64,000 nt of DNA, from positions 1-64,000 of the IMG/VR virus record IMGVR_UViG_3300021197_000245; one strand, given 5' to 3'. Of the stretch, positions 783-40,131 are shown piece by piece. Made by a program: the position numbers and the translations under genes. Positions within the stretch are counted from its first letter, which is position 1. The number at the start of each line of letters is the position of its first letter. The DNA comes from a virus. The notes below the pieces were generated by a model, which was not told where the DNA came from, did no database searches, and saw nothing but the letters and a program-made list of their open reading frames with translations.

Positions 783-995
783 ATGTTTTTATCTAATAAA
801 CAATTAAAAGAACTCAAAAAAAATAATTGGACACCCATGAAAACCAAGGACGGCACGGCTTGGTTTGGAGGAAAAACCCATAGCTCACTTGCCAATTATA
901 TTTCTAAAGATGAAATAGAAAATTTTCAGGATATAGATTTTTTAGTAATTGCTTGGTCAAATGTAAATGGTTTAAAGGAGGAAACAAATGATTAA
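783..995 (+). CDS. Hypothetical protein, 70 aa
   Basis: A 70-residue protein of unknown function, first gene after the 720-747 promoter and preceded by TAGGAGA. It is lysine-rich at the N-terminus with several Trp residues and no membrane segment. Its 3' end overlaps the next gene by 8 nt, with that gene's AAAGGAGG inside this frame, so the two are probably co-translated. No family is recognised. Confidence 0.7.
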   Translation: MFLSNKQLKELKKNNWTPMKTKDGTAWFGGKTHSSLANYISKDEIENFQDIDFLVIAWSNVNGLKEETND

Positions 996-1686
996 ATTAG
1001 TCAAAAATTCTACTGCAAAAAAAACAACTTATTGTGCAGTAACTTATAGAGCTGGAGGACATGATAAATTTGCAACTTGCCCTAAGACTTGTAGTTTAAA
1101 GCCTGATACTTCAGCGGGCGCAACAGAAATAGATTATGGTTATCTTGATGCAGTATCTGATTCCGTCCCAAAAGGCGGCGTTAGTTTTACTTATTCACAT
1201 TTTAACCCTAAATATTGGAAACATAAACTTAGAGCGGGTAAAACGGCTATAAACTATTCAGCAAAAAATATTTCGGATATGTTATTTCATTCATTCGTAC
1301 CCGTAGTAATAAATGTTAAAGAAACATTTTGGAAAACAAATGGTAAATCAGAAACAGTAAATGATTTTAAAATTGTTAGATGTCCCGCAGAATACAATAA
1401 ATCAAATTGTAGGGACTGCGGGAATGGAAAACCTTTATGCAGTCGTATTGATCGAGATTATGCGATAGGTTTTACTGATCATGGGACGTATAAAAAAAAG
1501 GCGGGTAGTGAAACAGAAAACGGCGGGTGTTATGCAACGGCGGGTAATGTTAAATTACACTGGGAGGCAACAACCAAAGGAGCTGATACTGAGCGGGACG
1601 AAATAAAACTTTTAAAATTTGCTCAGGAATTACCTTATGGAACAGTTTTAAGACATCACATAGCGGGAGATTTTGGGAAAGTTTGA
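988..1686 (+). CDS. Gp88/DUF7227-like cysteine-rich protein, probably C-terminally truncated
   Basis: A 232-residue protein with a Cys-rich N-terminus (YCAVTYRAGGH, then a CPKTC pair near residues 31-35) and a second Cys cluster (CRDCG plus a Cys before SRID) near 137-148, which suggests metal binding. The overall pattern, including LRHHIAGDFGK at the extreme C-terminus, recalls phage proteins called Gp88 or DUF7227, whose function is unknown. In relatives I remember, the HH-x-AGD-x-G motif lies inside the protein and is followed by more sequence. Here a TGA follows two residues later, so the gene may be truncated. The family assignment is tentative. Confidence 0.6.
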   Translation: MIKLVKNSTAKKTTYCAVTYRAGGHDKFATCPKTCSLKPDTSAGATEIDYGYLDAVSDSVPKGGVSFTYSHFNPKYWKHKLRAGKTAINYSAKNISDMLFHSFVPVVINVKETFWKTNGKSETVNDFKIVRCPAEYNKSNCRDCGNGKPLCSRIDRDYAIGFTDHGTYKKKAGSETENGGCYATAGNVKLHWEATTKGADTERDEIKLLKFAQELPYGTVLRHHIAGDFGKV

Positions 1687-4678: not shown

Positions 4679-6133
4679 ATGGATGGTACAATGCAAGACG
4701 AAAGGCTCTTAAAACTCGAACTAAGATTAGCTCAGTTAGAGAAGAACGAAGAGTGCCAAAAAACATTTTTAACTTTTGTAAAAAGTATCTGGCCGAGCTT
4801 TATTCAAGGTAGGCACCATGAGATAATTGCAGAAAAATTAGAAAGAGTAGCTAGGGGTGAATTAAAAAGATTAATAATCAACATGGCACCGCGACACACG
4901 AAATCTGAGTTTGCATCCTTTTTGTTTCCGGCGTGGATGATGGGCCGCAGCCCGAACATGAAGATCATTCAGGCCACACATACGACAGAGCTTGCTGTTA
5001 ATTTTGGTAGAAAGGTCAAGAACCTTTTGGAGACGGACGAGTTCAAGACAGTATTTCCAGATGTAAGCTTGGCGGTAGACAGTAAAGCGTCCGGAAGATG
5101 GGATACGAATAAGGGTGGTATGTATTATGCGGTGGGTGTTGGCTCGAACTTAGCTGGTCGTGGTGGAGATTTAATCATAATCGATGATCCTCACTCGGAA
5201 CAGACGGCTATGAGTAACAATGGTTTTGAAGATGCGTGGGATTGGTATACTGGGGGCCCCCGACAGAGGCTCCAGCCGGGAGGTAGTATAGTTATAGTTC
5301 AAACGAGGTGGTCAGAAAAGGATTTGACGGGTCAGTTGGTTCGCTCAATGGCAAAGGATCCCCTAGCGGATCAGTGGGAGATAGTGGAATTACCTGCTAT
5401 TTTTGATAATGGGGAACCTTGTTGGCCTGAATATTGGAGTTTAGATGATTTAACGGCGGTAAAAGCGTCTATTCCGCCTAGTAAATGGAATGCACAGTAC
5501 CAGCAGCAGCCTACTGGTGAAGAAAATGCGATAATTAAGAGAGAATGGTGGCGGAAATGGGAGAAAAAGAGTGTTCCTAACCTACAATATGTGATTCAAA
5601 GCTATGATACGGCTTTCTCGAAACGTGAAACGGCTGACTTTAGTGCGATAACGACATGGGGAGTGTTTTATCCAGAGGAAGTAGGGGGTCAACCTGCTTT
5701 AATTTTGCTTGATAGTGTGAAAGACAGGTGGGATTTCCCGGAATTGAAGAATATTGCCTTAGAGCAGTATAATTATTGGGACCCCGAGACAGTAATTATA
5801 GAAGCGAAGGCTACGGGGCTGCCGCTCACACATGAATTGCGTAATATGGGAATACCTGTTGTTAACTTTACACCGAGTAAAGGTAATGATAAGGTATCGA
5901 GAGTACATGCGGTGTCTCCTTTGTTTGAAGCAGGGATGGTTTGGGTCCCTGACGAGACTTTCGCGGATGAGATGATAGAAGAGGTTGCAGCTTTTCCAAA
6001 TGGAGAGTATGATGACCTTGTGGATAGCATGACACAGGCCTTAATGCGCTATCGTCAAGGTAATTTTGTACAGCTACCGACTGACGATTGGGAAGAAGGC
6101 GATGGGTCGGCTCAGGTAAGGGCTTATTATTGA
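4679..6133 (+). CDS. terL: Terminase large subunit
   Basis: ATP-driven DNA packaging motor and headful/terminal nuclease, 484 aa, a normal length. The ATPase domain shows a Walker A-like MAPRHTKSE (69-77), Walker B DLIIIDDPH (164-172) and a coupling motif QTRW (208-211). The RNase H-like nuclease domain has Asp310 in QSYDTAF, Glu375 in IIEAKATG and the Asp cluster in EYDDLVDSM (443-451). It is the first gene after the 4608 promoter, with AAAGGGAC as ribosome binding site. No small terminase is recognisable next to it. Confidence 0.95.
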   Translation: MDGTMQDERLLKLELRLAQLEKNEECQKTFLTFVKSIWPSFIQGRHHEIIAEKLERVARGELKRLIINMAPRHTKSEFASFLFPAWMMGRSPNMKIIQATHTTELAVNFGRKVKNLLETDEFKTVFPDVSLAVDSKASGRWDTNKGGMYYAVGVGSNLAGRGGDLIIIDDPHSEQTAMSNNGFEDAWDWYTGGPRQRLQPGGSIVIVQTRWSEKDLTGQLVRSMAKDPLADQWEIVELPAIFDNGEPCWPEYWSLDDLTAVKASIPPSKWNAQYQQQPTGEENAIIKREWWRKWEKKSVPNLQYVIQSYDTAFSKRETADFSAITTWGVFYPEEVGGQPALILLDSVKDRWDFPELKNIALEQYNYWDPETVIIEAKATGLPLTHELRNMGIPVVNFTPSKGNDKVSRVHAVSPLFEAGMVWVPDETFADEMIEEVAAFPNGEYDDLVDSMTQALMRYRQGNFVQLPTDDWEEGDGSAQVRAYY

Positions 6134-6140
6134 GGTGAAC

Positions 6141-6602
6141 ATGGCTGATAGTGTAGTACGCAACGCAACTAAAGAAGACGATTCTAATATTGGTTATGAT
6201 GATATTGTAAGGATGTTAGAAGAAGACCCATATGCGTTGGATCCTCTGGATCAAGATACTACGACAGCTCCTGAAGAATTTGACGAGCCTATGGAAGAAA
6301 TAGGTAAGAAACTTTTTCAATTCGATGGTAGCGAGTCAGAAGGCGGCTTGGCGGATGCTCCTTTAGGTGGTATTGATCTGTTGAACACTAACTACGTCAA
6401 ACCAAAGTATATACCTTTGGAATATGGCGGGTCCCCCGGAATAGAGAGTATAATGAAGAAAACCACTATTGAGATGCAGGAGATACCTGCTGACAGAAAG
6501 ATGTTGGTAATGAACCGCATCATGAAACAAGGTGGTGTAACCCAATCCCGCGACCCACGGCTCATGGCTCAGTTAGCACAGGTTCTTGGAAGAGATGGCT
6601 AA
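6141..6602 (+). CDS. Hypothetical acidic protein between terL and the polyvalent gene
   Basis: A 153-residue protein, acidic and probably disordered in the first half and helical in the last 40 residues (MLVMNRIMKQGGVTQSRDP region). The ATG at 6141 follows GAGGTG; a GTG at 6135 is an alternative. It overlaps the next gene by 8 nt. A structural or head-assembly role is suggested only by position. No family is recognised. Confidence 0.7.
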   Translation: MADSVVRNATKEDDSNIGYDDIVRMLEEDPYALDPLDQDTTTAPEEFDEPMEEIGKKLFQFDGSESEGGLADAPLGGIDLLNTNYVKPKYIPLEYGGSPGIESIMKKTTIEMQEIPADRKMLVMNRIMKQGGVTQSRDPRLMAQLAQVLGRDG

Positions 6603-8364
6603 AGATCAAATAAATTATGAAGATGACTTTACGGTTGAGGACGAGACCGCTTTATCTCGTTTAGAGGAACGGGACAGGGCCCCCGAAGTTAGTTCAGGGG
6701 ACATATACAAGACAGGTGCCTATGCGGGTATGATGTTACCGTCTGCGGGTATCGCAGACTACTTTGGACAATACCCTAATCCTGAAAAAGCAGGAACGCT
6801 TCTTCCTTCTTTTGATGAAAATGTGAACAAAGGTGAATACTTTAATGCGGCCATGCAGTTCTTAGGAGCTGCGGGAGATGCTTCGTATACAATACCTACA
6901 ATAGGGACTGTTACAGGCACAGGGTTAAAAGCGTTAGCTCTTGGAGGTAAGTTATCAAAAGTGCAACTATCTAAGTTAATGGATGGTATTGGTGCCTATA
7001 TGACTAAGACGAATGATCCGATGCTTGCCGTGTCAGGCGGTCCTGATCTTAACATGGGACCCTCGATTACAAAAATGGAAGGTCCTCCTTCTAGTGGAGG
7101 GTCTAACATTACGCAGGACTTAAATCTAGGTTCAGGGAGTTTATTCAGTCCTGAAGTCAAAAAGGGTCGTAAACTTTTGATTGTGTCTTGTAGCGCAGAT
7201 AAATGTCCAGATCCTGGAGATATGGAGGCTTTTGATCGTTATACAGGTGATATGTATAAAACTATTAAGAAAGCAGGGGTCCCAGAAGAGAATGTAGATT
7301 TAGCTATTATGTCGGCTAAGTATGGGCTTATAAGAAGAGACACAAAGATACCAAATTACAATGTAAAGATGAATAAGAAGATAGCAAAAAATCTTTTAAA
7401 TGATTCTGATCAGGTAAATCGTATTAAAAATACAATAGATGGTTATGATGAGGTTGTTGTAGAAGGTTCCAACTTATACAAGGGTGTGATCAAAGAGGCA
7501 GCTGGAGACGTTCCTTTAAGAGATTTTAAAATAGATTATGAGAAGAACTTACCAGAGGGTGAGCGCAGTAACTATGGTTCAGGTAGACAAAAGCAGTCTG
7601 TAGGAAATTTTCTAAGGTCTAATACTCCGCAAGAAGTATTTCATTACACTCCTGATGTAGAGTTAGGGTTTACAGTTTTTAATCCAGACAAAGCTTCTAA
7701 TGCTTTAGATGCTCTCGGTACACATGTTGGTACAAAAAAAGCTGCTTCGGATAGGTTTATGGCTTTAGAAGGTAAGGCTATAGCAAATAACTCACAGTTT
7801 GTAACTGGTAATGTTGGTAAAGATGAAGCAGGTAATTTTATTCGCCGTACCACTCGTGGAGGCACATATCCTTTAAAAGCTGATGTAAGTAAACCCTATA
7901 CCCCTGATAAGTTTTATGAAGGACAAGTAAGCGGAATTGGTCCTAGTAAAGAAGTTTGGGGTGAGTCAGATATTTATGGTCATCTTCTTGATGAATATAA
8001 TAAAAACCGTAGCACTAGATACACTATGAGATCTATGGTTGGAGACGAGCCCGACTTTCCTTTTAGTGACTTTCGTAAGTTTATTGGCGAGTTTAGACTA
8101 AAATTAGCTGAAGATGGTTTTACGCATTTGCCTTATTATAATGAAGTTGAAGATTATGGTTCTATCTCTTATGTTATGTTGACGGACAGACCTAAAGGTG
8201 GCAAAGCTGTCCTGAAGGGAAAGTTTGGTAAAAACGATCCGAGAGAAAGAACAAACCCAGACATTATGAAAGAGGATGGCGGTGTGGTATCTTTGAAAGA
8301 CAAAGCGGTCAACATGCACCGCGGCCCACGAGGCATTGAATATTATATGCAATCTGTGGTATAG
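6595..8364 (+). CDS. Polyvalent protein: DUF6884-like plus ADP-ribosyltransferase-like domains
   Basis: A 589-residue multidomain protein. After an acidic N-terminus comes a Gly/Ala-rich segment of the kind seen in phage head or ejection proteins (~45-115). Residues ~193-300 look like DUF6884/YaaA: LLIVSCSADKC, then DRYTG and IMSAKYGLI. Residues ~345-535 resemble polyvalent ART domains: VFHYTPD, LGTHVGTKKAASDRF and NEVEDYGSISYV. The C-terminus has a MHRGPRG tail. ATG 6595 is preferred over TTG 6586. The place between terL and portal is where some phages carry MuF-type proteins, so packaging into the head and delivery to the host cell is a reasonable inference. Enzymatic activity is not shown. 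Confidence 0.65.
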   Translation: MAKDQINYEDDFTVEDETALSRLEERDRAPEVSSGDIYKTGAYAGMMLPSAGIADYFGQYPNPEKAGTLLPSFDENVNKGEYFNAAMQFLGAAGDASYTIPTIGTVTGTGLKALALGGKLSKVQLSKLMDGIGAYMTKTNDPMLAVSGGPDLNMGPSITKMEGPPSSGGSNITQDLNLGSGSLFSPEVKKGRKLLIVSCSADKCPDPGDMEAFDRYTGDMYKTIKKAGVPEENVDLAIMSAKYGLIRRDTKIPNYNVKMNKKIAKNLLNDSDQVNRIKNTIDGYDEVVVEGSNLYKGVIKEAAGDVPLRDFKIDYEKNLPEGERSNYGSGRQKQSVGNFLRSNTPQEVFHYTPDVELGFTVFNPDKASNALDALGTHVGTKKAASDRFMALEGKAIANNSQFVTGNVGKDEAGNFIRRTTRGGTYPLKADVSKPYTPDKFYEGQVSGIGPSKEVWGESDIYGHLLDEYNKNRSTRYTMRSMVGDEPDFPFSDFRKFIGEFRLKLAEDGFTHLPYYNEVEDYGSISYVMLTDRPKGGKAVLKGKFGKNDPRERTNPDIMKEDGGVVSLKDKAVNMHRGPRGIEYYMQSVV

Positions 8365-8383: not shown

Positions 8384-10804
8384 ATGGCAAGAGAACCAAT
8401 AGGCAGCATGATGGAAAATGTCCCATCTCAATTAGATGAGGATGAATTAGCTGCTGAAGTAGAAATAGAGATGCCTGACAGTCTTGACATGGGACCTATC
8501 CCAGAAGACGTGGAGATTATGGAAGAAGATGATGGAAGTGTTGTCGTTGATTTTGAGCCACGAGATCAACGAGGCACGACTGAAGACTTCTATGCCAACT
8601 TAGCTGAAGAGATGCCTGATGGTTTACTTGGAAAGATTGCGAGTGAGCTGACAGGTGAGTTTGACGAGAATAAGAGCGGTAGACAGGAGTGGGAAGATGC
8701 TTTCGCCAATGGTTTGGAATTACTTGGATTTAGCTACGAGGAGAGATCACAGCCCTTCAGAGGTGCGAGTGGGGTTACTCACCCGCTTTTGGCGGAATCG
8801 GCAACGCAGTTTCAAGCCCAAGCCTTCAATGAGTTGTTGCCTCCCACTGGACCCGTGCGAACTACCGTGCTTGGATCAAGCACTCCTGAAAAGGAAGACC
8901 AAGCCCAACGAGTAAAGGAGTTTATGAACTACTACATAACTTGTGTTATGGAAGAGTACACTCCTGAATTAGATCAGATGTTATTTTATTTACCGTTAGC
9001 GGGTAGTACGTTTAAGAAAGTTTATTATGATGAGAACTTAGAACGAGCTGTAAGTAAGTTTGTTCCAGCTGAGAATTTGATTGTACCTTACAACACCACG
9101 GATCTGGAAACTTGTCCTAATATTACTCAAGTTTTGAAACTGAGCTTAAATGATTTAAGAAAGCGGCAAGTTGCTGGTTTTTACAGGGACATTCCTGTTA
9201 TACCTGCACAGGGCGAATCGGGAGCCCTGAACGATGAGCTAGAAAGAATAGATGGAATGTATCCATCTCAGATAAATTATGACTGCACTTTATTAGAATG
9301 TCATGTTGATCTGGATCTTGAGGGTTATGAGGAGCTAGACGAGGACGGTGAGCCGACAGGCATAAAAGTTCCTTATATTGTCACTCTTTCTCAGGATAAT
9401 GGCCAAATTCTGTCGATTCGCAGGAATTTCAGGGAAGACGATGCAAAGAAGTCTAAGATACAATATTTTGTACATTACAAGTTTCTTCCGGGTTTTGGTT
9501 TCTATGGACTAGGACTAATACATACAATCGGTGGTTTATCGCGAACCGCGACTGCTGCACTAAGGCAGTTGATTGATGCAGGCACGTTATCGAACTTACC
9601 AGCAGGTTTCAAGGCCCGCGGCCTACGGATCAGGGATGATGACGAGCCCTTACAGCCGGGAGAGTTTAGGGATGTAGATGCTCCGGGTGGTGATATAAAA
9701 GCAAGTTTAATGTCATTGCCCTTCAAGGGACCCGATCAGACCTTAATGCAGTTACTAGGCTTTGTAGTTGATGCGGGACAACGATTCGCTACCATAACGG
9801 ACTTGAAAGTAGGCGATGGTAATCAACAGGCAGCTGTGGGCACGACTATAGCGATGTTGGAACAGGGCTCACGGGTCATGTCTGCGGTGCATAAGAGATT
9901 ACATTATGCGATGAAATTAGAGTTCAAGCTCTTATCTAAGGTGATGTCTGAGTTTTTACCGGACGAGTATCCTTACACAATAACGGGTGTTGATGGCAGT
10001 ATAAGAAGACAGGATTTTGATGACAGGGTAGATGTACTTCCTGTTTCTAATCCGAATGTATTCAGTCAGGCACAGAGGATATCTTTGGCTCAGACTAAGA
10101 TGCAGTTAGCTACGTCAGCTCCTGATATGCACAACATGTATGAAGTGTTTAGGGACATGTATGAGGCTTTGGGTGTCAGAGATATAGACCGGGTCTTGAA
10201 GAGAACACCAGAGCCGGAGGCTATACCAAAGGATCCTGCTCAGGAGAACATAGATGTTTTGGATCAGATTAAGCTTACTGTTTTTGAGGGTCAGTCTCAT
10301 GAAGCACATATAATGGCACACATGGTTTTTGGATCTACACCTCTTGTAGCTCAGTCTCCACAGATGGCGGTGGCGTTACAGAAGCACATAATGGAACACG
10401 TTAAGATTGGAGCTCGTGAAAGAGCAGCTGTTGACTTAATACAAATGGGAGGTGGTCAGGCTATATCTGAAGAACAGATGATTGATATGGAAGCGAAGAC
10501 CGCTCAATATGTTGCAGAAGGTATGTCTCAGTTAAAATCTCTAAGTGCTCAATTAAGTGGAGCTGGTCAGCCGGATCCTTTAGTACAGTTGAAAGAGAAA
10601 GAATTACAACTAAAGGCGCAAGCAGAACAGAATGATTCTCAGGTAGACAGGGCTAAACTAGGGCTTGAAGAGAAGAAGGTCGAGCAGAGAAGCGAGCAGT
10701 TTGATAAGCGAATACAGAGCTCTGAGAGTATAGCTAAGGCTAGAATTGATTCGTCTATGCAACGTGAATTATTAAAACAACAAAACAACCAAGGAGGTCA
10801 GTGA
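8384..10804 (+). CDS. Portal protein, P22-like
   Basis: An 806-residue portal that would form the dodecameric head vertex through which DNA enters and leaves. The N-terminal ~60 residues are acidic. The core includes RGASGVTHPLLAESATQFQAQ and GFGFYGLGLIHTIGG segments typical of podovirus portals. The C-terminal ~130 residues are Gln/Lys/Glu-rich and helical (KEKELQLKAQAEQ), as in the P22 barrel. The start has AAAGGAG 7 bases upstream. The stop overlaps the next ATG (TGATG). Confidence 0.92.
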   Translation: MAREPIGSMMENVPSQLDEDELAAEVEIEMPDSLDMGPIPEDVEIMEEDDGSVVVDFEPRDQRGTTEDFYANLAEEMPDGLLGKIASELTGEFDENKSGRQEWEDAFANGLELLGFSYEERSQPFRGASGVTHPLLAESATQFQAQAFNELLPPTGPVRTTVLGSSTPEKEDQAQRVKEFMNYYITCVMEEYTPELDQMLFYLPLAGSTFKKVYYDENLERAVSKFVPAENLIVPYNTTDLETCPNITQVLKLSLNDLRKRQVAGFYRDIPVIPAQGESGALNDELERIDGMYPSQINYDCTLLECHVDLDLEGYEELDEDGEPTGIKVPYIVTLSQDNGQILSIRRNFREDDAKKSKIQYFVHYKFLPGFGFYGLGLIHTIGGLSRTATAALRQLIDAGTLSNLPAGFKARGLRIRDDDEPLQPGEFRDVDAPGGDIKASLMSLPFKGPDQTLMQLLGFVVDAGQRFATITDLKVGDGNQQAAVGTTIAMLEQGSRVMSAVHKRLHYAMKLEFKLLSKVMSEFLPDEYPYTITGVDGSIRRQDFDDRVDVLPVSNPNVFSQAQRISLAQTKMQLATSAPDMHNMYEVFRDMYEALGVRDIDRVLKRTPEPEAIPKDPAQENIDVLDQIKLTVFEGQSHEAHIMAHMVFGSTPLVAQSPQMAVALQKHIMEHVKIGARERAAVDLIQMGGGQAISEEQMIDMEAKTAQYVAEGMSQLKSLSAQLSGAGQPDPLVQLKEKELQLKAQAEQNDSQVDRAKLGLEEKKVEQRSEQFDKRIQSSESIAKARIDSSMQRELLKQQNNQGGQ

Positions 10805-11586: not shown

Positions 11587-11819
11587 ATGTAGAGACTTTT
11601 CTGAGGTGGAAAATCCTCCCAAGGTTAATGATGCTCGCCAGTACAGTTATGTCTTGGAGATGTGCTGAATGGTTTATGGAATTGGATTCTCCTACTGCCG
11701 CTCAGTCAGCTTTTGTATCTGTGGTTATGGGTGTAATGACAGGTGTGTTTGGTATATGGATGGGTCACGAACATAAAGGAGATAATAATGTTAACAGCAT
11801 TGATAGGACCGGTAAGTAA
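11583..11819 (+). CDS. Two-helix membrane protein, holin-like, 78 aa
   Basis: A 78-residue protein starting ETFLRWKILPRLMML, with two hydrophobic helices (~12-32 and ~40-60) separated by a polar turn and followed by a polar tail. Similar MNWETFLRWKILPR proteins occur in marine phages next to lysis genes; the role is unproven. The 3' end overlaps the holin start at 11788 by 32 nt in another frame. Confidence 0.65.
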   Translation: MNVETFLRWKILPRLMMLASTVMSWRCAEWFMELDSPTAAQSAFVSVVMGVMTGVFGIWMGHEHKGDNNVNSIDRTGK

Positions 11820-12183
11820 TTTACTTGGTAAGTTTATAGAAGACAAAGACATGAAGAATAAGTTGGCACATGAGGTGGCAACTATGGCAGAGAATCATGC
11901 ACAGGAACTAGCTAAAGGTCAGCTAGATATAAACAAAGCAGAAGCTCAACACAAGTCAATCTTTGTGGCGGGCTGGCGACCCTTTATCGGTTGGACTTGT
12001 GGTGTAGCACTGTGTTGGCATTTTGTCTTAGCACCTGTTACTATGTTTGTGTGTGCATATTTGTCTGTGCAAATACCCGAATTGCCAACTTTTGATATGG
12101 GTTCACTTATGACAGTTTTGATGGGAATGCTCGGATTGGGCGGTTTGAGGACATATGAAAAGCAAAAGGGTTTAACCAAATGA
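11788..12183 (+). CDS. GTA-type 3TM holin, copy 1
   Basis: A 131-residue protein of the gene-transfer-agent 3TM holin type, recognised by FVAGWRPFIGWTCG (~58-71) and hydrophobic segments at ~63-90 and ~105-120. It would form lesions in the inner membrane to release or activate the endolysin. The ATG at 11788 is chosen because it follows AAAGGAG and matches the start of the second copy (29459); the frame is open upstream to 11743. Protein copy 2 differs at only nine positions. No lysozyme gene follows this copy. Confidence 0.85.
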   Translation: MLTALIGPVSNLLGKFIEDKDMKNKLAHEVATMAENHAQELAKGQLDINKAEAQHKSIFVAGWRPFIGWTCGVALCWHFVLAPVTMFVCAYLSVQIPELPTFDMGSLMTVLMGMLGLGGLRTYEKQKGLTK

Positions 12184-29346: not shown

Positions 29347-29474
29347 AAGCTTGGAATGATCTTTCTTATATAGAAGGAGCTTTATTTACAGTTTGGTTAT
29401 TTATTCTTTATTACGGTAAAGTGTGGATAGACAGTAAATTTAAACGAAAGGAATGTACATGCTTACGGCGTTAA
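29328..29474 (+). CDS. Single-pass membrane peptide, 48 aa
   Basis: A 48-codon frame overlapping the preceding gene by 19 nt and the holin start by 16 nt. It has one transmembrane helix (GALFTVWLFILYYGKVW) and a basic, Cys-containing tail (KFKRKECTCLRR). It is the counterpart of the small membrane gene that precedes holin copy 1. Confidence 0.6.
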   Translation: MENMVLEAWNDLSYIEGALFTVWLFILYYGKVWIDSKFKRKECTCLRR

Positions 29475-29854
29475 TAGGACCCGTTTCTAATCTTCTTGGT
29501 AAGTTTATAGAAGATAAAGACATGAAAAATAAGTTGGCACATGAAGTGGCAACTATGGCAGAGAATCATGCACAGGAACTGGCAAAAGGTCAGATAGAGA
29601 TAAACAAAGCAGAAGCAACACATAAATCAATATTTGTAGCGGGCTGGCGCCCCTTTATTGGTTGGACATGCGGCATTGCCCTATGTTGGCATTTCGTACT
29701 GGCGCCTGTCACTATGTTTGTGTGCGCTTATTTAAACGTGGTTATACCTGAATTACCTACATTTGACATGGGTTCACTTATGACTGTTTTGATGGGAATG
29801 CTCGGATTGGGCGGACTTCGCAGTTTCGAGAAGTATAAAGGATTAACAAAATGA
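29459..29854 (+). CDS. GTA-type 3TM holin, copy 2
   Basis: A 131-residue holin nearly identical in protein sequence to copy 1 at 11788 (nine replacements, mostly conservative), though many codons differ silently. The start at 29459 is chosen over ATG 29453 by that homology and by its spacing from AAAGGA. It is followed by the paralogous 33-aa gene and then the GH24 lysozyme, so this copy is in a complete lysis order. Confidence 0.88.
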   Translation: MLTALIGPVSNLLGKFIEDKDMKNKLAHEVATMAENHAQELAKGQIEINKAEATHKSIFVAGWRPFIGWTCGIALCWHFVLAPVTMFVCAYLNVVIPELPTFDMGSLMTVLMGMLGLGGLRSFEKYKGLTK

Positions 29855-33239: not shown

Positions 33240-36200
33240 ATGGCTCCTATACTCGATCCTATAAAAAAGATTATTAAGAAACCAATCAAATGGATTGGCG
33301 ATAGAATTGAAGATGTCGGTGACTGGGTTGTCGATGAAATAATTGATCCTGTTGTAGAGACAGTCGAAGGCACTATAGATGCTTTATTAGATGACCCATT
33401 AAAAACTATAGCAACGATTGCACTAGTAGCCACAGGAAATGCGTGGGCTTTGCCTCTTTTAGAGGGTGCTGATGTTGCTGTAAATGGTGGTGATATTGGT
33501 GATATCCTTGAGGCGACTGCTAAAGCCTATGTTGCACAACAAGTAGGGGCAGCCGCAGGTAATTACGCAGGTAAAGCTGCTACGGCTAATATTACTTCGG
33601 CGGCACAGGCAAAAATAGTAGGTTCTATTGTTGCACAAGGTACAGCTAGTGCTACATCTGCTGTTATTTATGGACAAGATCCTGTTGAAGCATTTTTAAA
33701 AGGTGGAGTACAAGCTGGGGTATCTGCTAGTTTAGGTCAGCTATCAGAAAATACAGATTATCAAAAACTACCACAAGCAGCAAAAAATGTAATAGAGACG
33801 TCTATAACGGCTACATTATCAGGACAAGATGTAACTCCTGCAATGATAGCTGGCGCAGTAACTAAAGCTTATGTAACTGCCGAAACAGTAGGATCATACT
33901 TAAATGAGACTGAGTATGATGAGTTTGGAGATGTATTACCTAAAGATTTTAATGATGCACAAGTTGCAGCAATTACAAATGGTATACTAAACACAGCAAA
34001 TGCGGCTTTTGCAGGTGGAGATGTACCGAAAGCTATAATGGACTCTGTAATGAAGTATGGAGCTTCAGAACTTAACAAGACTATAGATAAGACCGTTAAA
34101 AACACTATAGATAAAGTGACAGGAAACTATGAAGCTACCGCAGATAAAGCACAAGAAGTTGACGATGCGTTAGATGATTACGAAGCTGCTGCTGCTAATT
34201 ATAATTCTATAGCAGATGAGATGAAGCCTAGGTTTGATGAACGTGCTAGATTAAAAGGTAATGTTGATGATTTAAAAATTAAATTGCAAAACCAAGATCC
34301 TGGCTCAAATGTAGATACAGAAAATAGAAACAAATATCAGGCTATTTTAAATGATTATAATGCAGCTGTAAAAACATATAATTCGTATACTACACAGTTA
34401 GATAAAGACTATAACGATAATTTTAAACCTTTATTAGATAAATATAAAGCTGAAGCAGACACAGCCTATGGTTCTCTTGATAATTTGACTAAGGAGTATA
34501 ACGTACTAAAAGAAGAGTTAATATCTAGCGGAGATCAGCTAGATGATGTGCTTAAACCCGTACAAAATGCAACAGATAAAGCATTTGTATTGGCTATGAT
34601 AGGCGAAGACTTTAATGCAGAAGAGTATGCAGCATTAAACGGTTTGGACGATGGTGGTGAAACAGGTGAAGAGATAGATCCATATTATCACTGGCTTACA
34701 ACAGGTAAAGATGAAGGTTTACCTGTAAATACTGAACAATATAACGAATTTTACTCGCAAAAAAGAAGTGATTTATTAAATGAAGCTTTAGGCAAAGCAG
34801 GGTTAAATTTAAGTAACTTAACCAAAGAGCAACAAAAAACTATAATTGATAACTTTGACGCTAATTATGATGATTTACAGTCATTAAATTTAGTAGACAC
34901 GGATAATCTTGGGTTGGATATAGGGTCTGATTGGTTAAAAGATATTATAATTAACAACGACACATTGTCCGCAGAAGAAAAAACAGAATATCTTAAAGGT
35001 GTGGATAGTATTAAGGCAGACACTACACAAACAAACGAAGAAAAATTTAAACAAATACAAGAGATAACGTCTTTACCAAATGTAAAAGTAGATTCAGGCG
35101 AAGTAGTTGCAAAAGCAGAGGGCGTAACTGACGAAGATATAGCTAGTAATAAAGCACGGATTCACGTTGGTAAAAATGGGCTAGTAAATTGGGACGATAT
35201 TAGTGGGTTAAGCTATGGAAAGTGGGATTCTACTCGTAATATTTTAACAAGAGAAGTGCCTCATCCCACACAACCTGGAGCAACTACTTTAATAAACTCG
35301 GCAACAGGAGAGTATTTAGACCTAAATCCAGATGGTTCTCCGTCAATGCGTATAACTATATACCCTAGCTTAACTCTTGAGGAATTAAGAGGAGAAGATC
35401 CAGCTACTTGGGCTAAACACGTAAATAGTCTTGATTCTAAAGGTGGGTCAGTATTAAACGAGGTAATTAGTGCTGTAAAAGGTGACATGGTTGACCACTA
35501 TGAGTTAGTAAAAAATATATACAAATATGTCGCTGAGACAGATACAGGTAAAGACATAGTTAATAGTGATGCTTTTAAGAATTTAAGTGGTATTGCTGCA
35601 GAAGCAGGCGGAGAGCTATTACAAGCAACAAATACGTTAGTGCTATTAGCAGGAGTAAACCCTGCATCCACTCCTCTTGGTAAATCTGCTAGAGAAATGA
35701 TAGCTCTTGGCGGAGATATGAAGACTGATGAGTGGAAAGCAGCAAAGAAATCTATAGATGACAGAATAGAAGGTGCTACAGGATTTATAGACACAACAAA
35801 AGCCATATTTGGCTCTTTAGCCGACAGTCCTACAGTTTTCTTATCTGAGTTTATAGGTAAAGAAATATTACAAGAAATACCTATATTAGTCGTTAGTGGT
35901 GGAGTAGGAAACGTCGCTAAAAATTTAGCATTAGAAGCAGGTGAAGCATATGCTAAGAAGTTAGCAACAAAAGTTGGTTATAGCACAGCTTTAACTCTTG
36001 ACGCTGTAGAAGCTTTTGGAGGTACAGCAAACGGAGCCTTTGATGATGCGTATGCAACAGGTTTAAAAGCAGGTATGTCAGAAGAAGAAGCTTCTGCTTT
36101 TGCTAAAGACGTTGCTATAAGAGCAGGCACAACCGCAGTTATGGCTAATTTTACTTTAAACAAAATTGGTGGTGCCGAGTTTGAAAAAGCTATGTTTGGC

Positions 36201-38453
36201 AACAAAAAAGGTGGGTCCGTAGCAGAGGCATTTAATGCTTTTGGTAAAAATGTAGTTAAAGAGTCTGGCACAGAGGGTATTGAAGAGTTTGCTGGGCAAG
36301 GTATGGTAGAATTATCTGTATACGGTCTAGATCCTGACAGAGATATAGCTGGTAATCTTACTACTAACACTATACTTGGCGTGTTAGCAGGTGGTGGTAC
36401 ATCATCTACGTTATTAGCAGGTAAAGGTGCATTTAATCAAACAGGTAATTTTGTATCTAATGTAGTATCAAACACTAATTATGAAGTTGATAAAGTACTA
36501 AAAGGTTATGATGGCACACCTGAAGGTCTAACAGCCGCAGAAACACAGTTAAACAACTTAGGACTAGCTAACAATAATATAGTAAAAACTAACTTACTTA
36601 ACATAATGAGCCCGAGTGACTACACAAGTAGTGGTGATGTAATAGATGCGTTTAAAAACGTAGAGGGGGTATATACACCTAAAAAAGGAGAGCAAGATCA
36701 GTTTGTAGGTAAAACGTCTGATACAGACTTTGCATCTGAGTTTGAGACATATATTGATGCAGGCGTTGTAGATAAACAAGAAATATTAGACTTAGCTACA
36801 GCAGAGGGTATAACACTTACAGATGAGCAGATAGCAGAGTTAACAGGTCAAAAACCTGAAGCAGAGTTTATAGCAGAACAGCAGAAGATATTTGATCCTC
36901 AAGCTGTAACAAAAGAAGAAGCTAAAAAATATCTTACAGATCAAGGATATGATCCTACAGATGCCGAAGTTAATCAGTTTGTAAAACAAATTGAAGAGTC
37001 AAAACAACAAGAAGCCATACAACAATACGCACAAGAACGTCTTACCACAAGAGATGAAGCTGTTGCGTATTTACAATCTTTAGGATTTGATACTAATCAA
37101 CTACCCGCTGAATTTATAGATAGTTTTGTAAAACAAGGTCTACAGACTGACACAGAAAAAGAAATAGCTGAAGCTGCTGATCCGTTCTTTGTAGATAGAG
37201 AAGAAGTTTTAGCACAGTTTAGAGCTGCTGGACTGCCTGATGTACGACCAGAAGACGTAGATAAGCTAGTAGGGCAATATAATGAGTCCGAGCTAGAAGG
37301 CAAAATAAACAGAGCCCTGCGTGGTGCACAATACAACGTGCTTAAATATAACATAGGTGCTCCGTCTACAGAAGATACACCTGCTACGGGTATATTTAAA
37401 CAATTAGAAGAGTTAAAAGCTGCTGGTGCTACGCAAGATGAAGCTATAAAAGCACTTAGTGACCAACTTAATATCAGTGTTGAAGAGCTTACTAATCAGA
37501 TAAGCACTGTAGAGGCTGGACTGCAAGAGCAAATATTTGATGTAGGCGATCAAGTATCTGATGTACAAGATCAACTTACTAAGACAGAAGCATCGCTAAC
37601 ACAGCAAATACAACAACTTGTGGATGCAGGTGCAACTCAAGATGAAGCTATACAGTCTCTTAGTGACAAGCTCGGTGTTAGTGTAACAGATCTAACTAGC
37701 CAAATAACAGGTATAGAAACTAAGCTAGGTCAAAAAATAACTGATGTAGAATCAGACTTACTTGAACAAATTACTGGTGTAAAGACTGACATTACAGAAC
37801 AAATAGCTGATGTAGAAACTGGTATCACAGATGAGATTACGCAGATAGGTGATATAATTGGTAAACCTGCAGGTGAGGTAACTGATGTAGATATTGATTT
37901 TATTACTGATCTGATAGCTCAACAAGAGGCATTAGCTGATCCGTCTACATTCGAGCTTACCACTGACATGCTTCAGTATGATGTTACAGGTGATGGTAAA
38001 GTAGATGCCGCTGACCAAACTTTACTGCAAAACGCTATGCAAGGACAGGATGTACAGTTTGCACAAGATTCTAAGTTTGCTCCTACAGGTATATTTGGCA
38101 CAATAGCTGATACAAAAGCTGACGTTACTCAAAACTTTACACAACAAGTAGCAGATGCACAGTCACAAATAGAAACAATGCTTACACAACAAGCAGAAGA
38201 TGAGAAACAAAGACTTGCTCTGCAGGCTCAAAGACAACAAAGACAACAGAATGTACAGCAGTTGTATGGTGCTCTGCAACCACAGGCAGTTGAGGTAAAA
38301 CAATCTCCTCTTGCTCAAATAGGCACACCCTACGATTTTCAAAGCATATTTAGAGATCCAGGACAACAATCATTTTACAGAACACCCTACAGAAAAGGTG
38401 GACAAGTTACAGAAATTAATGATAGATTATTAAAACTTATAGGAGATAGCTAA
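33240..38453 (+). CDS. Giant internal virion (ejection) protein, 1737 aa
   Basis: A 1737-residue protein: an amphipathic, Trp-containing N-terminus (KKIIKKPIKWIGDRIEDVG), an Ala/Gly-rich region (~90-260) and long coiled coils (~280-440). A ~850-1090 segment has GTEGIEEFAGQGMVE, which is echoed in the 2391-aa protein. Two ~90-residue coiled repeats share AGATQDEAI (~1400 and ~1465). A dockerin/EF-hand-like VTGDGKVDAADQTLL lies at ~1581, and a Gln-rich C-terminus follows. The design fits a protein packaged in the head and ejected to span the envelope. Precise family unrecognised. Confidence 0.75.
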   Translation: MAPILDPIKKIIKKPIKWIGDRIEDVGDWVVDEIIDPVVETVEGTIDALLDDPLKTIATIALVATGNAWALPLLEGADVAVNGGDIGDILEATAKAYVAQQVGAAAGNYAGKAATANITSAAQAKIVGSIVAQGTASATSAVIYGQDPVEAFLKGGVQAGVSASLGQLSENTDYQKLPQAAKNVIETSITATLSGQDVTPAMIAGAVTKAYVTAETVGSYLNETEYDEFGDVLPKDFNDAQVAAITNGILNTANAAFAGGDVPKAIMDSVMKYGASELNKTIDKTVKNTIDKVTGNYEATADKAQEVDDALDDYEAAAANYNSIADEMKPRFDERARLKGNVDDLKIKLQNQDPGSNVDTENRNKYQAILNDYNAAVKTYNSYTTQLDKDYNDNFKPLLDKYKAEADTAYGSLDNLTKEYNVLKEELISSGDQLDDVLKPVQNATDKAFVLAMIGEDFNAEEYAALNGLDDGGETGEEIDPYYHWLTTGKDEGLPVNTEQYNEFYSQKRSDLLNEALGKAGLNLSNLTKEQQKTIIDNFDANYDDLQSLNLVDTDNLGLDIGSDWLKDIIINNDTLSAEEKTEYLKGVDSIKADTTQTNEEKFKQIQEITSLPNVKVDSGEVVAKAEGVTDEDIASNKARIHVGKNGLVNWDDISGLSYGKWDSTRNILTREVPHPTQPGATTLINSATGEYLDLNPDGSPSMRITIYPSLTLEELRGEDPATWAKHVNSLDSKGGSVLNEVISAVKGDMVDHYELVKNIYKYVAETDTGKDIVNSDAFKNLSGIAAEAGGELLQATNTLVLLAGVNPASTPLGKSAREMIALGGDMKTDEWKAAKKSIDDRIEGATGFIDTTKAIFGSLADSPTVFLSEFIGKEILQEIPILVVSGGVGNVAKNLALEAGEAYAKKLATKVGYSTALTLDAVEAFGGTANGAFDDAYATGLKAGMSEEEASAFAKDVAIRAGTTAVMANFTLNKIGGAEFEKAMFGNKKGGSVAEAFNAFGKNVVKESGTEGIEEFAGQGMVELSVYGLDPDRDIAGNLTTNTILGVLAGGGTSSTLLAGKGAFNQTGNFVSNVVSNTNYEVDKVLKGYDGTPEGLTAAETQLNNLGLANNNIVKTNLLNIMSPSDYTSSGDVIDAFKNVEGVYTPKKGEQDQFVGKTSDTDFASEFETYIDAGVVDKQEILDLATAEGITLTDEQIAELTGQKPEAEFIAEQQKIFDPQAVTKEEAKKYLTDQGYDPTDAEVNQFVKQIEESKQQEAIQQYAQERLTTRDEAVAYLQSLGFDTNQLPAEFIDSFVKQGLQTDTEKEIAEAADPFFVDREEVLAQFRAAGLPDVRPEDVDKLVGQYNESELEGKINRALRGAQYNVLKYNIGAPSTEDTPATGIFKQLEELKAAGATQDEAIKALSDQLNISVEELTNQISTVEAGLQEQIFDVGDQVSDVQDQLTKTEASLTQQIQQLVDAGATQDEAIQSLSDKLGVSVTDLTSQITGIETKLGQKITDVESDLLEQITGVKTDITEQIADVETGITDEITQIGDIIGKPAGEVTDVDIDFITDLIAQQEALADPSTFELTTDMLQYDVTGDGKVDAADQTLLQNAMQGQDVQFAQDSKFAPTGIFGTIADTKADVTQNFTQQVADAQSQIETMLTQQAEDEKQRLALQAQRQQRQQNVQQLYGALQPQAVEVKQSPLAQIGTPYDFQSIFRDPGQQSFYRTPYRKGGQVTEINDRLLKLIGDS

Positions 38454-39211
38454 TGGCTGACTTTTGGGATACAATACTAGGTGCTGGTGACACTGCGTAC
38501 AACTACTTAACCAACACTGGTGATAGTGGTTTTCTTGATGATGTAACAGACATATTTCAAACAGATGATGGTAGTATAGATTTTAGAAGCGTGGCAGGTG
38601 GAGTTGGTGGTTTAGCTAGTTTGTTAGGCTCTGCAGGTGTTATTAGTGGTAATAGTTCTTTAGGTAAATTTTTAGGTGTGGGTGGTCCACAAATGACTGG
38701 ATACCAAGGTAAGATACCTACATACACAGCCTCACGACAACAAGTTCCTGGGTCATTTGATCCTAATCGTAGACCTGGAAGTAGTGGACAACGATATTTT
38801 ACAGACGTAGATTATGGTGGCGGGGATACAAGTGGTGCAGCAGCTGCGTTACAAACAGCTAATTTAGCTAACCCTGCAAGGCAGACAATGTCTGTTCCTA
38901 CTCCTGCACCTCAAAATTTAGCTATGGGTGGCATTGCGGGTATGGCACCTCCTAGATATCTTAGAAGTGCTACAGATGGTATGGCAGACAAGATACCTGC
39001 AAGCATAGATGGAAAAGACCCAGCAGCATTAAGTGGTGGTGAGTTTGTCGTACCTGCAGATGTAGTCAGTGGTATGGGTAATGGTAACTCCGACGCAGGG
39101 GCAAAGAATTTATATGCAATGATGGATAGGGTAAGACAAGCTAGGACAGGTACAACAAAACAAGCCCCTGCTATAGACCCTGACAAAATGCTTCCAATGG
39201 GGAGGGCTTAA
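38453..39211 (+). CDS. Internal virion protein with GEFVVPADVV domain, 252 aa
   Basis: A 252-residue protein with a Gly/Ser-rich N-terminal two thirds and a conserved C-terminus: DGMADKIPASIDGKDPA, then GGEFVVPADVVSGMGNGN and MMDRVRQARTG. The last segment occurs, from memory, in ejection or membrane-penetrating proteins of many marine phages. A LAMGGIAGMAPP stretch at ~150 is hydrophobic. It is likely packaged with its neighbours. Confidence 0.7.
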   Translation: MADFWDTILGAGDTAYNYLTNTGDSGFLDDVTDIFQTDDGSIDFRSVAGGVGGLASLLGSAGVISGNSSLGKFLGVGGPQMTGYQGKIPTYTASRQQVPGSFDPNRRPGSSGQRYFTDVDYGGGDTSGAAAALQTANLANPARQTMSVPTPAPQNLAMGGIAGMAPPRYLRSATDGMADKIPASIDGKDPAALSGGEFVVPADVVSGMGNGNSDAGAKNLYAMMDRVRQARTGTTKQAPAIDPDKMLPMGRA

Positions 39212-39213
39212 TT

Positions 39214-40128
39214 ATGGCAGAAACACAAGTAGATACAACAGGTGCAGGTGCTTTAGCTACAACTAGTGCTGGAAGTACATTAGGTAAACAAACAGGTACA
39301 GAGTCAGCTCTTTCCAACTATGTTGGACCTTATGTTACAGAGATGCTTGGTCGAGGTCAGGCACTTGGAAGTATGCCATATCAGGCGTATCAAGGACCTC
39401 TTACAGCAGGACAAACCGATTTACAAAGCCAAGCTTTTAGTGGTTTAGCAGGATTAACACTACCTACAGAACAGATGGGAGCCTTCACACCAACGAGTTT
39501 TACAGATACTGGTACTGCTCAACAGTTTATGAATCCATATTTACAAGGTGCATTAGACCCGCAAATAGATGCGGCTAGAAGACAGGCAGAAATACAACGA
39601 GTTGCAGACGCAGGGAGGTTAACTAAAGCAGGTGCATTTGGTGGTTCAAGACAAGCTGTTATGGAGGCTGAAGGTAATCGTGGTTTGTTAGACAGAATAG
39701 CTAGTATTACAGGCACAGGATATGCGAATGCTTATGACAAAGCTATGCAACAGTTTAATACAGAACAGAACTTGCAAAAAGCTGCTCAAGACATGACTAA
39801 TCAGTATGGTCTGGGTACATTACTCAAACAAGCTGACTTAGGTTCATTACAGCGTGGTATTGAAGGTGAAGGCATTGCAGCTGATAGAGCACAGTTTGAA
39901 GAAGAAAGAGATTTCCCATACAAACAAGTACAATATATGCAGTCATTACTACAGGGTTTACCTCTTGCAGCACAATCGTACACATATCAACAACCTACAG
40001 GGATAAGTGAATTATCACAATCTATAGGTGGTGTTCAAAAGTTGTATGATTCAATATTTGGTGGTGATAAAAATACAGGCATTACAACAAATCAAATGGA
40101 CGCAATAGATACAGGTGATGTGGAGTAA
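39214..40128 (+). CDS. Internal virion protein, 304 aa
   Basis: A 304-residue, Gln/Ala/Gly-rich helical protein. The central KAGAFGGSRQAVMEAEGNRG segment is a recognisable feature of phage ejection proteins encoded beside large internal virion proteins. It has no transmembrane helix. It lies in an ordered run of four such genes (33240-42063), so co-ejection is plausible. Confidence 0.7.
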   Translation: MAETQVDTTGAGALATTSAGSTLGKQTGTESALSNYVGPYVTEMLGRGQALGSMPYQAYQGPLTAGQTDLQSQAFSGLAGLTLPTEQMGAFTPTSFTDTGTAQQFMNPYLQGALDPQIDAARRQAEIQRVADAGRLTKAGAFGGSRQAVMEAEGNRGLLDRIASITGTGYANAYDKAMQQFNTEQNLQKAAQDMTNQYGLGTLLKQADLGSLQRGIEGEGIAADRAQFEEERDFPYKQVQYMQSLLQGLPLAAQSYTYQQPTGISELSQSIGGVQKLYDSIFGGDKNTGITTNQMDAIDTGDVE

Positions 40129-40131
40129 AAA

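What the first reader, a model, noticed from the sequence alone, without database searches (positions are those of the whole stretch)
6595..8364. Polyvalent DUF6884-like and ADP-ribosyltransferase-like protein beside terL
Between terL and the portal is a 589-aa protein that joins a virion-type N-terminus, a DUF6884/YaaA-like domain (SCSADKC, IMSAKYGLI) and a domain resembling polyvalent ARTs (FHYTP, LGTHVGTKKAA, NEVEDYGSISY). Seen: the motifs and their order. Known: polyvalent proteins (Iyer and colleagues) combine effectors and are delivered with phage DNA. Inferred: this is a packaged effector that modifies a host target. The DUF6884-ART combination is the part I have not seen described.
Basis: partly seen in the sequence, partly recalled or inferred. 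Interest (0 to 1): 0.75.

Follow-up and report, generated by a model that had tools for sequence, protein, structure and literature searches.

The report
Swappable injected-enzyme gene beside phage portal
A marine virus of bacteria carries, squeezed between its two DNA-packaging genes, a mix-and-match protein that joins a nucleic-acid-base domain to a domain with the fold of ADP-ribose-tagging enzymes; near-identical viruses swap these parts freely while keeping the same tail-end peptide, as expected of a cargo slot for enzymes injected into the host, although nobody has yet shown that it is packed into the particle.

Summary
Window 6595-8361 encodes a 589-aa protein between terL and the portal, after a small gene (6135-6602). 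Residues about 188-340 are a DUF6884/YaaA domain: two Pfam models above cut-off, CxxxK and SAxxG motifs intact, dN/dS about 0.1. The domain also matches the DNA-base enzyme DpdC, and the best solved-structure match is AF0587. Residues about 338-546 take an ADP-ribosyltransferase (ART) fold: AlphaFold pLDDT 84, and nearly all structural matches are ARTs. No ART sequence model fires on the window protein itself.

The terL-portal interval is a cargo slot. Flanking genes stay 80-99% identical while N-terminus, YaaA, ART and extra C-terminal modules are exchanged independently or lost. Elsewhere in this phage group the slot is empty or holds unrelated proteins. A short C-terminal peptide (GGVVSLKDKAVNM..R) is shared by otherwise unrelated cargo; 54 of 55 tagged genes lie directly upstream of portal.

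Most likely this is a virion-delivered, polyvalent-type effector whose parts are shuffled. Packaging, catalysis and target are inferred. The DUF6884-ART pairing and the tagged slot were not found described in the library searched. It is a new variant of a known kind.

The parts
4679..6133 (+). terminase large subunit (terL), upstream border of the cargo slot
   Evidence: PHROG 38 E=1e-106; 64% identical to terL of Pelagibacter phage HTVC027P
6135..6602 (+). small gene (155 aa) found next to most members of this cargo family; conserved C-terminal ~50 aa; overlaps the cargo start by 8 nt
   Evidence: relatives aligned; neighbour table; no Pfam match
6595..8364 (+). modular cargo protein, 589 aa
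   Evidence: relatives
6595..7104 (+). N-terminal module (residues 1-170), low confidence, exchangeable
   Evidence: pLDDT <50; 91-95% identical in some relatives and absent in others
7156..7614 (+). DUF6884/YaaA-like domain (residues 188-340), CxxxK at 199-203 and SAKYG at 240-244
   Evidence: Pfam above cut-off; AF0587 Z 9.2 and YaaA Z 6.6; DpdC model E=5.8e-8; dN/dS about 0.1
7606..8232 (+). ADP-ribosyltransferase-fold domain (residues 338-546); invariant H350, H377, E519
   Evidence: AlphaFold pLDDT 83.6, pTM 0.82; matches are ART superfamily; BFVD PolyVal ARTs; invariants
8278..8361 (+). C-terminal peptide GGVVSLKDKAVNMHRGPRGIEYYMQSVV, shared by otherwise unrelated slot proteins
8384..10804 (+). 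portal protein, downstream border of the cargo slot
   Evidence: SU10_portal E=9e-14; PHROG 1216 E=3e-58

Best explanation
The gene is the current occupant of a dedicated cargo slot between terL and portal in HTVC023P/HTVC027P-like marine podoviruses. Its product is a polyvalent-type effector made late with the head proteins, loaded into the virion and injected with the DNA. The C-terminal peptide is a candidate docking signal for loading, possibly with help from the small gene just upstream. In the new host cell the ART-fold domain would transfer ADP-ribose from NAD+ to a host molecule. The DUF6884 domain would bind nucleic acid and act on, or flip out, a base, as its relatives DpdC and YfjM/YaaA are thought to do. 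It may either hold the enzyme at the incoming DNA or alter a host nucleic acid. Shown: the two domains, their conservation under purifying selection, the slot, the module swapping and the shared peptide. Inferred: late expression, packaging, injection, catalysis, targets and the role of the peptide.
For: DUF6884/YaaA above Pfam cut-offs, and the YaaA and AF0587 folds recovered from the model. ART fold: confident model; apart from an A4 pre-ejectosome chain, all VIA-align rows are ART-superfamily entries (ParT, RES, MbcT, diphtheria toxin, PARPs, pertussis toxin, and the anti-CRISPR 6kyf, which I recall as an ADP-ribosyltransferase). The top row is that A4 chain, residues 1419-1601 of an in-capsid protein (Z 7.0). 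BFVD hits include annotated PolyVal ADP-ribosyltransferases, the best with probability 1.0. A bridging relative, L092, matches ART-PolyVal at E=1e-5 in one virus record, below cut-off. Strong purifying selection on YaaA (dN/dS 0.08-0.12), weaker on ART (0.12-0.37). The slot sits among packaging genes in the relatives that reach a neighbour, apart from the most distant ART hits. Flanks are conserved while cargo modules vary independently. Slot content ranges from nothing to over 5 kb of unrelated proteins, including LPD23, PcfJ, GNAT and SprT domains. C-terminal peptide: 54 of 55 tagged ORFs lie directly upstream of portal, and at least five complete ones lack both ART and YaaA. Purifying selection on the peptide. 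Published model: T4 Alt is packaged and injected, polyvalent proteins are inferred to be, and phage ARTs are often encoded beside terminase and portal (PMC5512222, PMC9503650).
Against: No virion proteomics. No expression data for this gene. The ART domain has no direct hit to any ART sequence family. VIA-align Z values for it are below 8. The catalytic triad could not be mapped onto coordinates; the conserved pattern (H, H, E) differs from the H-Y-D of published polyvalent ARTs. The conserved 3' end could instead be a recombination anchor. Many slot proteins lack the peptide.
Confidence: 0.58

Rival explanations
1. It is a late-expressed effector that acts in the infected cell that makes it (for example against superinfecting phage or in host shut-down) and is never packaged.
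For: No virion evidence exists; the position among late genes fits late expression as well as packaging. The PADLOC candidate defence family PDC-M57A matches the DUF6884 domain.
Against: The locus is next to terL and portal in nearly all relatives that reach a neighbour; the C-terminal peptide is specific to the gene next to portal; phage ARTs in this position are generally inferred to be packaged (PMC9503650).
Confidence: 0.2
2. It is a structural or ejection protein in which the ART-like and YaaA-like folds are dead and serve as packing or DNA-binding modules, as may be so for the ART-like stretch of the cyanophage A4 pre-ejectosome.
For: Best structural match of the ART domain is an A4 pre-ejectosome chain; triad not canonical; YaaA copurifies with dsDNA (PMC4834066).
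Against: Slot empty in 6 of 36 IMG/VR contigs of the group with both borders; YaaA domain absent in near-identical phages; putative active-site residues invariant in all 37 (ART) or 13 (YaaA) relatives.
Confidence: 0.13
3. (Concerns the peptide only, compatible with any of the above.) The shared C-terminal peptide is not a sorting signal but the conserved 3' border (recombination anchor) at which cargo cassettes are exchanged.
For: It lies at the exact 3' border of the variable region, next to a conserved ribosome-binding region and portal start; modules are clearly exchanged.
Against: Amino-acid changes are far rarer than synonymous ones (core pN 0.12 against pS 0.59); copies are also kept internally after the ART module when another module follows; variants such as GIGGLSDTARNMFRPMVS share the peptide pattern rather than the exact sequence.
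Confidence: 0.3

Closest known systems
Polyvalent proteins of phages and conjugative elements (Iyer et al. 2017, PMC5512222)
   Same: Several effector-type domains in one polypeptide, ART common, zincin-type (HExxH) modules in relatives, encoded among head and packaging genes
   Different: DUF6884/YaaA not mentioned there by these names; exchange of modules in one fixed slot with a common C-terminal peptide not found there in the passages read
ART-PolyVal (PF18760) / Tox-ART-HYD2 ARTs
   Same: Same fold by structure; annotated PolyVal ARTs among BFVD matches; a bridging relative (L092) matches the model weakly
   Different: Window domain does not match the model; invariant H-H-E pattern instead of H-Y-D
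DUF6884 (PF21818), YaaA (PF03883), DpdC, and the AF0587 fold
   Same: CxxxK and SAxxG motifs and fold; DpdC model matches part of the domain; relatives bind or modify bases in nucleic acid
   Different: Embedded in a multidomain phage cargo; the virus record has no TGT or QueC homologue, so a full 7-deazaguanine pathway is not evident
Phage T4 Alt
   Same: Phage ADP-ribosyltransferase packaged in the head and injected (published)
   Different: Alt is of the R-S-E clade; packaging of the window protein is untested
Cyanophage A4 pre-ejectosome chain (PDB 9k3a_B, residues 1419-1601)
   Same: Best structural match of the ART domain (Z 7.0); sits inside a podovirus capsid
   Different: Part of a very long chain; 14% identity; no sequence match

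Membership tests
DUF6884 (PF21818) | Score above the curated Pfam cut-off | tested here: met
   32 bits against cut-off 30, E=1.6e-7; eight of the ten related proteins scanned also match
DUF6884 (PF21818) | CxxxK and LSAxxG motifs (PMC11701544) | tested here: met
   C199-xxx-K203 and (M)S240-A241-xx-G244, invariant in 13 relatives with M for L
DUF6884 / YaaA | YaaA ('cantaloupe') fold | tested here: inconclusive
   VIA-align Z 6.6 to YaaA 5caj and 9.2 to AF0587 2q07, on a model of middling confidence in this part
DpdC | Full-length match to DpdC and company of dpdA/dpdB | tested here: not met
   Match covers about 50 of 319 positions; no TGT or QueC homologue in the virus record
ADP-ribosyltransferase superfamily | ART fold | tested here: met
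   pLDDT 83.6, pTM 0.82; the identified matches are ARTs, Z up to 6.2, plus the A4 chain at Z 7.0; BFVD PolyVal ARTs, the best with probability 1.0. Z under 8 taken alone would be weak
ADP-ribosyltransferase superfamily | Catalytic activity with NAD+ | not testable with these tools
   needs biochemistry
ART-PolyVal (PF18760) | Match to the Pfam model above cut-off | tested here: not met
   No match in the window record at E<=10; bridge L092 only 20.4 bits against 31.2
Tox-ART-HYD2 / polyvalent ART clade | H (strand 1), Y (strand 2), D (strand 5) | tested here: inconclusive
   H350 in strand 1 invariant; strand-2 position appears to be H377 and the late acidic residue E519; coordinates not at hand to superpose
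Polyvalent protein | Two or more distinct effector-type domains in one polypeptide, encoded among packaging genes | tested here: met
Polyvalent protein | Delivered into the host with the DNA | not testable with these tools
   needs virion proteomics or a translocation assay

The most novel reading that the evidence does not exclude
HTVC023P-like marine phages have a standard cargo bay between terL and portal: interchangeable enzyme cassettes carry a common C-terminal peptide, which acts as a transferable virion-loading signal. The present cassette injects a DpdC/YaaA-type base enzyme fused to an ADP-ribosyltransferase. This would be a previously unseen two-enzyme attack on, or protection of, nucleic acid in the first minutes of infection.
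Probability: 0.33. Interest if true: 0.78.

Novelty: new variant of a known kind. Interest (0 to 1): 0.6.

Why it matters
If right, it gives an easily recognised genomic address (the gene just before the portal, with a short C-terminal peptide) for finding injected effectors in a widespread group of ocean viruses, where almost all such proteins are annotated 'hypothetical'. It would also offer a peptide for loading proteins into phage heads, and it links the little-understood YaaA/DUF6884/DpdC group to phage attack. The near-identical phages that differ only in this cassette are natural experiments for testing what each module does.

Tried and rejected
Sequence searches of the PDB with the whole protein, the ART profile, the YaaA profile and the bridging ART found no relatives. 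No ART hit in Pfam, PHROGs or ART-PolyVal for the window domain. tblastn of distant ART members against 50,697 phage records gave nothing, and the whole protein hit only DUF6884-like stretches of two phages. A search of 149 genomes related to the MAG behind L204 for PF18760 was uninformative because its controls also stayed silent. A full 7-deazaguanine pathway in this virus was considered and not supported. The A4 pre-ejectosome paper is not held. The text of a published transcriptome paper on HTVC027P does not say when the slot genes are expressed. Foldseek E-values for the ART against the PDB were weak (0.2 or worse); the case rests on the uniform set of ART matches, on BFVD and on conserved residues. 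The C-terminal motif is found only once in the window itself.

Full report
What is there. The ORF at 6595-8364 is real (589 aa). It follows terL (4679-6133) and a 155-aa gene (6135-6602, overlapping by 8 nt), and is followed by the portal gene (8384-10804). The record is a 68-kb virus contig. TerL is 64% identical to that of Pelagibacter phage HTVC027P, and the portal is about 50% identical to those of HTVC027P, HTVC023P and phage DSL-LC04. So this is an HTVC023P-type marine podovirus relative. A contig with terL 94% and portal 89% identical sits in a Rhodobacteraceae MAG, so the host is not settled.

The DUF6884 domain. Pfam models DUF6884 and YaaA both match above their curated cut-offs. The two signature motifs named by Pfam's authors, CxxxK and LSAxxG (PMC11701544), are present with M for L, and are invariant in 13 relatives. 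In the full-length AlphaFold model this part aligns best with AF0587 (2q07, Z 9.2), then with YaaA (5caj, Z 6.6), and weakly with uracil-DNA glycosylases. A DpdC model matches all 13 members (best E 5.8e-8, over about 50 of 319 positions), and a published survey names DUF6884 as the Pfam domain of DpdC (PMC11888242). DpdC is needed to form the DNA base dADG (same paper); ArcS and DpdC are discussed together as amidotransferase and amidohydrolase in the preQ0 pathway (PMC6884629). That AF0587 is an archaeosine-synthase relative is my recollection and was not tested. So the domain is better read as a nucleic-acid-base domain than as a peroxide-stress protein. It is under strong purifying selection (dN/dS 0.08-0.12). 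The virus record holds no TGT or QueC homologue, so its substrate is open.

The ART domain. Thirty-seven diverse relatives align with invariant H350, G375, H377, R387, Y514, N516, E519 and S525. AlphaFold with this alignment gives pLDDT 83.6 and pTM 0.82. VIA-align returns ParT, RES and MbcT toxins, diphtheria toxin and relatives, tankyrase and PARPs, pertussis toxin, and a cyanophage A4 pre-ejectosome chain (residues 1419-1601) at the top with Z 7.0. Z values are below 8, but apart from that chain the rows form one superfamily. In BFVD, annotated 'PolyVal ADP-ribosyltransferase' proteins appear, the best with probability 1.0. By sequence the link is thin. PF18760 does not see the window protein and sees a bridging relative only below cut-off. 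Published polyvalent ARTs use H, Y, D (PMC5512222); here the conserved pattern looks like H, H, E. The fold is therefore well supported, membership in PF18760 is not, and activity is unknown.

The slot. Relatives fetched with the whole protein, the ART and the YaaA domain nearly all have the order terL, small gene, cargo, portal. A set fetched with the portal alone shows terL-portal gaps from -15 bp (empty, six of 36 IMG/VR contigs with both borders) to 5.3 kb. Together with the ART family, slot proteins fall into 33 groups without detectable similarity to each other, with LPD23, PcfJ, GNAT, SprT and DUF6973 matches among them. Cultured relatives hold different cargo: two proteins in HTVC027P and in 023Pt_psg01, a PcfJ-like protein in DSL-LC04, and a 201-aa protein in HTVC023P.

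Module exchange. In phages whose terL is 92-99% and portal 80-96% identical to the window's, the N-terminal module, YaaA, ART and tail vary independently. L006 shares the N-terminus (93%) but has YaaA 57% and ART 31%. L009 shares YaaA (92%) but has ART 38%. L022 lacks both the N-terminus and YaaA yet keeps the ART at 64%. The MAG contig L204 shows the same replacement on an almost identical backbone. Other relatives add HExxH modules after the ART.

The C-terminal peptide. The window protein ends GGVVSLKDKAVNMHRGPRGIEYYMQSVV. A motif for this peptide gives 75 hits among 4,759 distinct ORFs against 2.2 expected in shuffled sequence, nearly all close to the C-terminus of slot proteins; most belong to the one ART family. 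A looser form occurs in six of 33 unrelated cargo groups (chance about 4e-4). Searching IMG/VR with the peptide alone gave 55 distinct tagged ORFs. In all of them the last copy lies 18-36 residues from the end, 54 lie directly upstream of the portal, and ten show neither ART nor YaaA, at least five of these being complete. Synonymous changes outnumber amino-acid changes in the core (pS 0.59, pN 0.12). Two readings remain: a virion-loading or docking peptide, or a conserved recombination border. Selection on the amino acids and the internal copies left after the ART module favour the first.

How it probably works, and what is inferred. Gene position, module make-up and published precedent (T4 Alt; polyvalent proteins; ARTs beside terminase and portal in PMC9503650) make a virion-delivered effector the best explanation, at about 0.58. 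No step of packaging, injection or catalysis was shown here. The faster evolution of the ART (dN/dS up to 0.37) fits a domain facing a changing target; the slow YaaA domain fits a constant substrate such as nucleic acid. Both statements are inference.

Novelty. Polyvalent proteins and phage ARTs are known. In the open library searched, DUF6884 occurs in two papers, and the passages read pair it with no ART. A terL-portal cassette with a shared C-terminal peptide was not found described, but the library lacks most subscription papers. I file it as a new variant of a known kind.

Noticed in passing
window 42068-49243: 2391-aa protein with an LPD39 domain and a C-terminal PLxRFG ('tail-700') domain: a second polyvalent or ejection-type protein in the same virus.
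   Followed up: partly
window 11743-12183 and 29453-29854: Two nearly identical small membrane-protein genes (MLTALIGPVSNLLGKFIEDKDMKNKLAHEV...) 18 kb apart, apparently a duplication of a holin-like gene.
   Followed up: no
window 6135-6602; L062 2-379: The conserved C-terminal ~50 aa of the small gene upstream of the cargo (MKKTTIEMQEIPADRKMLVMNRIMKQGGVTQSRDPRLMAQLAQVLGRD) occurs in L062 behind an unrelated N-terminus, preceded by GGGVASL: it may be a second exchangeable cargo tail.
   Followed up: partly
window 33240-42063 and cargo loci (L150, L159, L162, L180, L184): Short GG[IVL]xx[LM]-like motifs (e.g. GGIAGMAPP, GGGIIGFAAGD, RGGIMSLRGY) recur in late proteins of these marine phages; enriched at cargo C-termini (18/59 against 9% of internal windows) and absent from the last 60 aa of 82 portals. 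Function unknown.
   Followed up: partly
PDB 9k3a_B residues 1419-1601 (match of window residues about 343-545): The cyanophage A4 pre-ejectosome protein appears to contain an ART-like fold inside the capsid; worth checking whether its authors noted it.
   Followed up: no
window 988-1686: DUF7227 protein (E=3e-23) of unknown function in the low-GC left end of the window.
   Followed up: no
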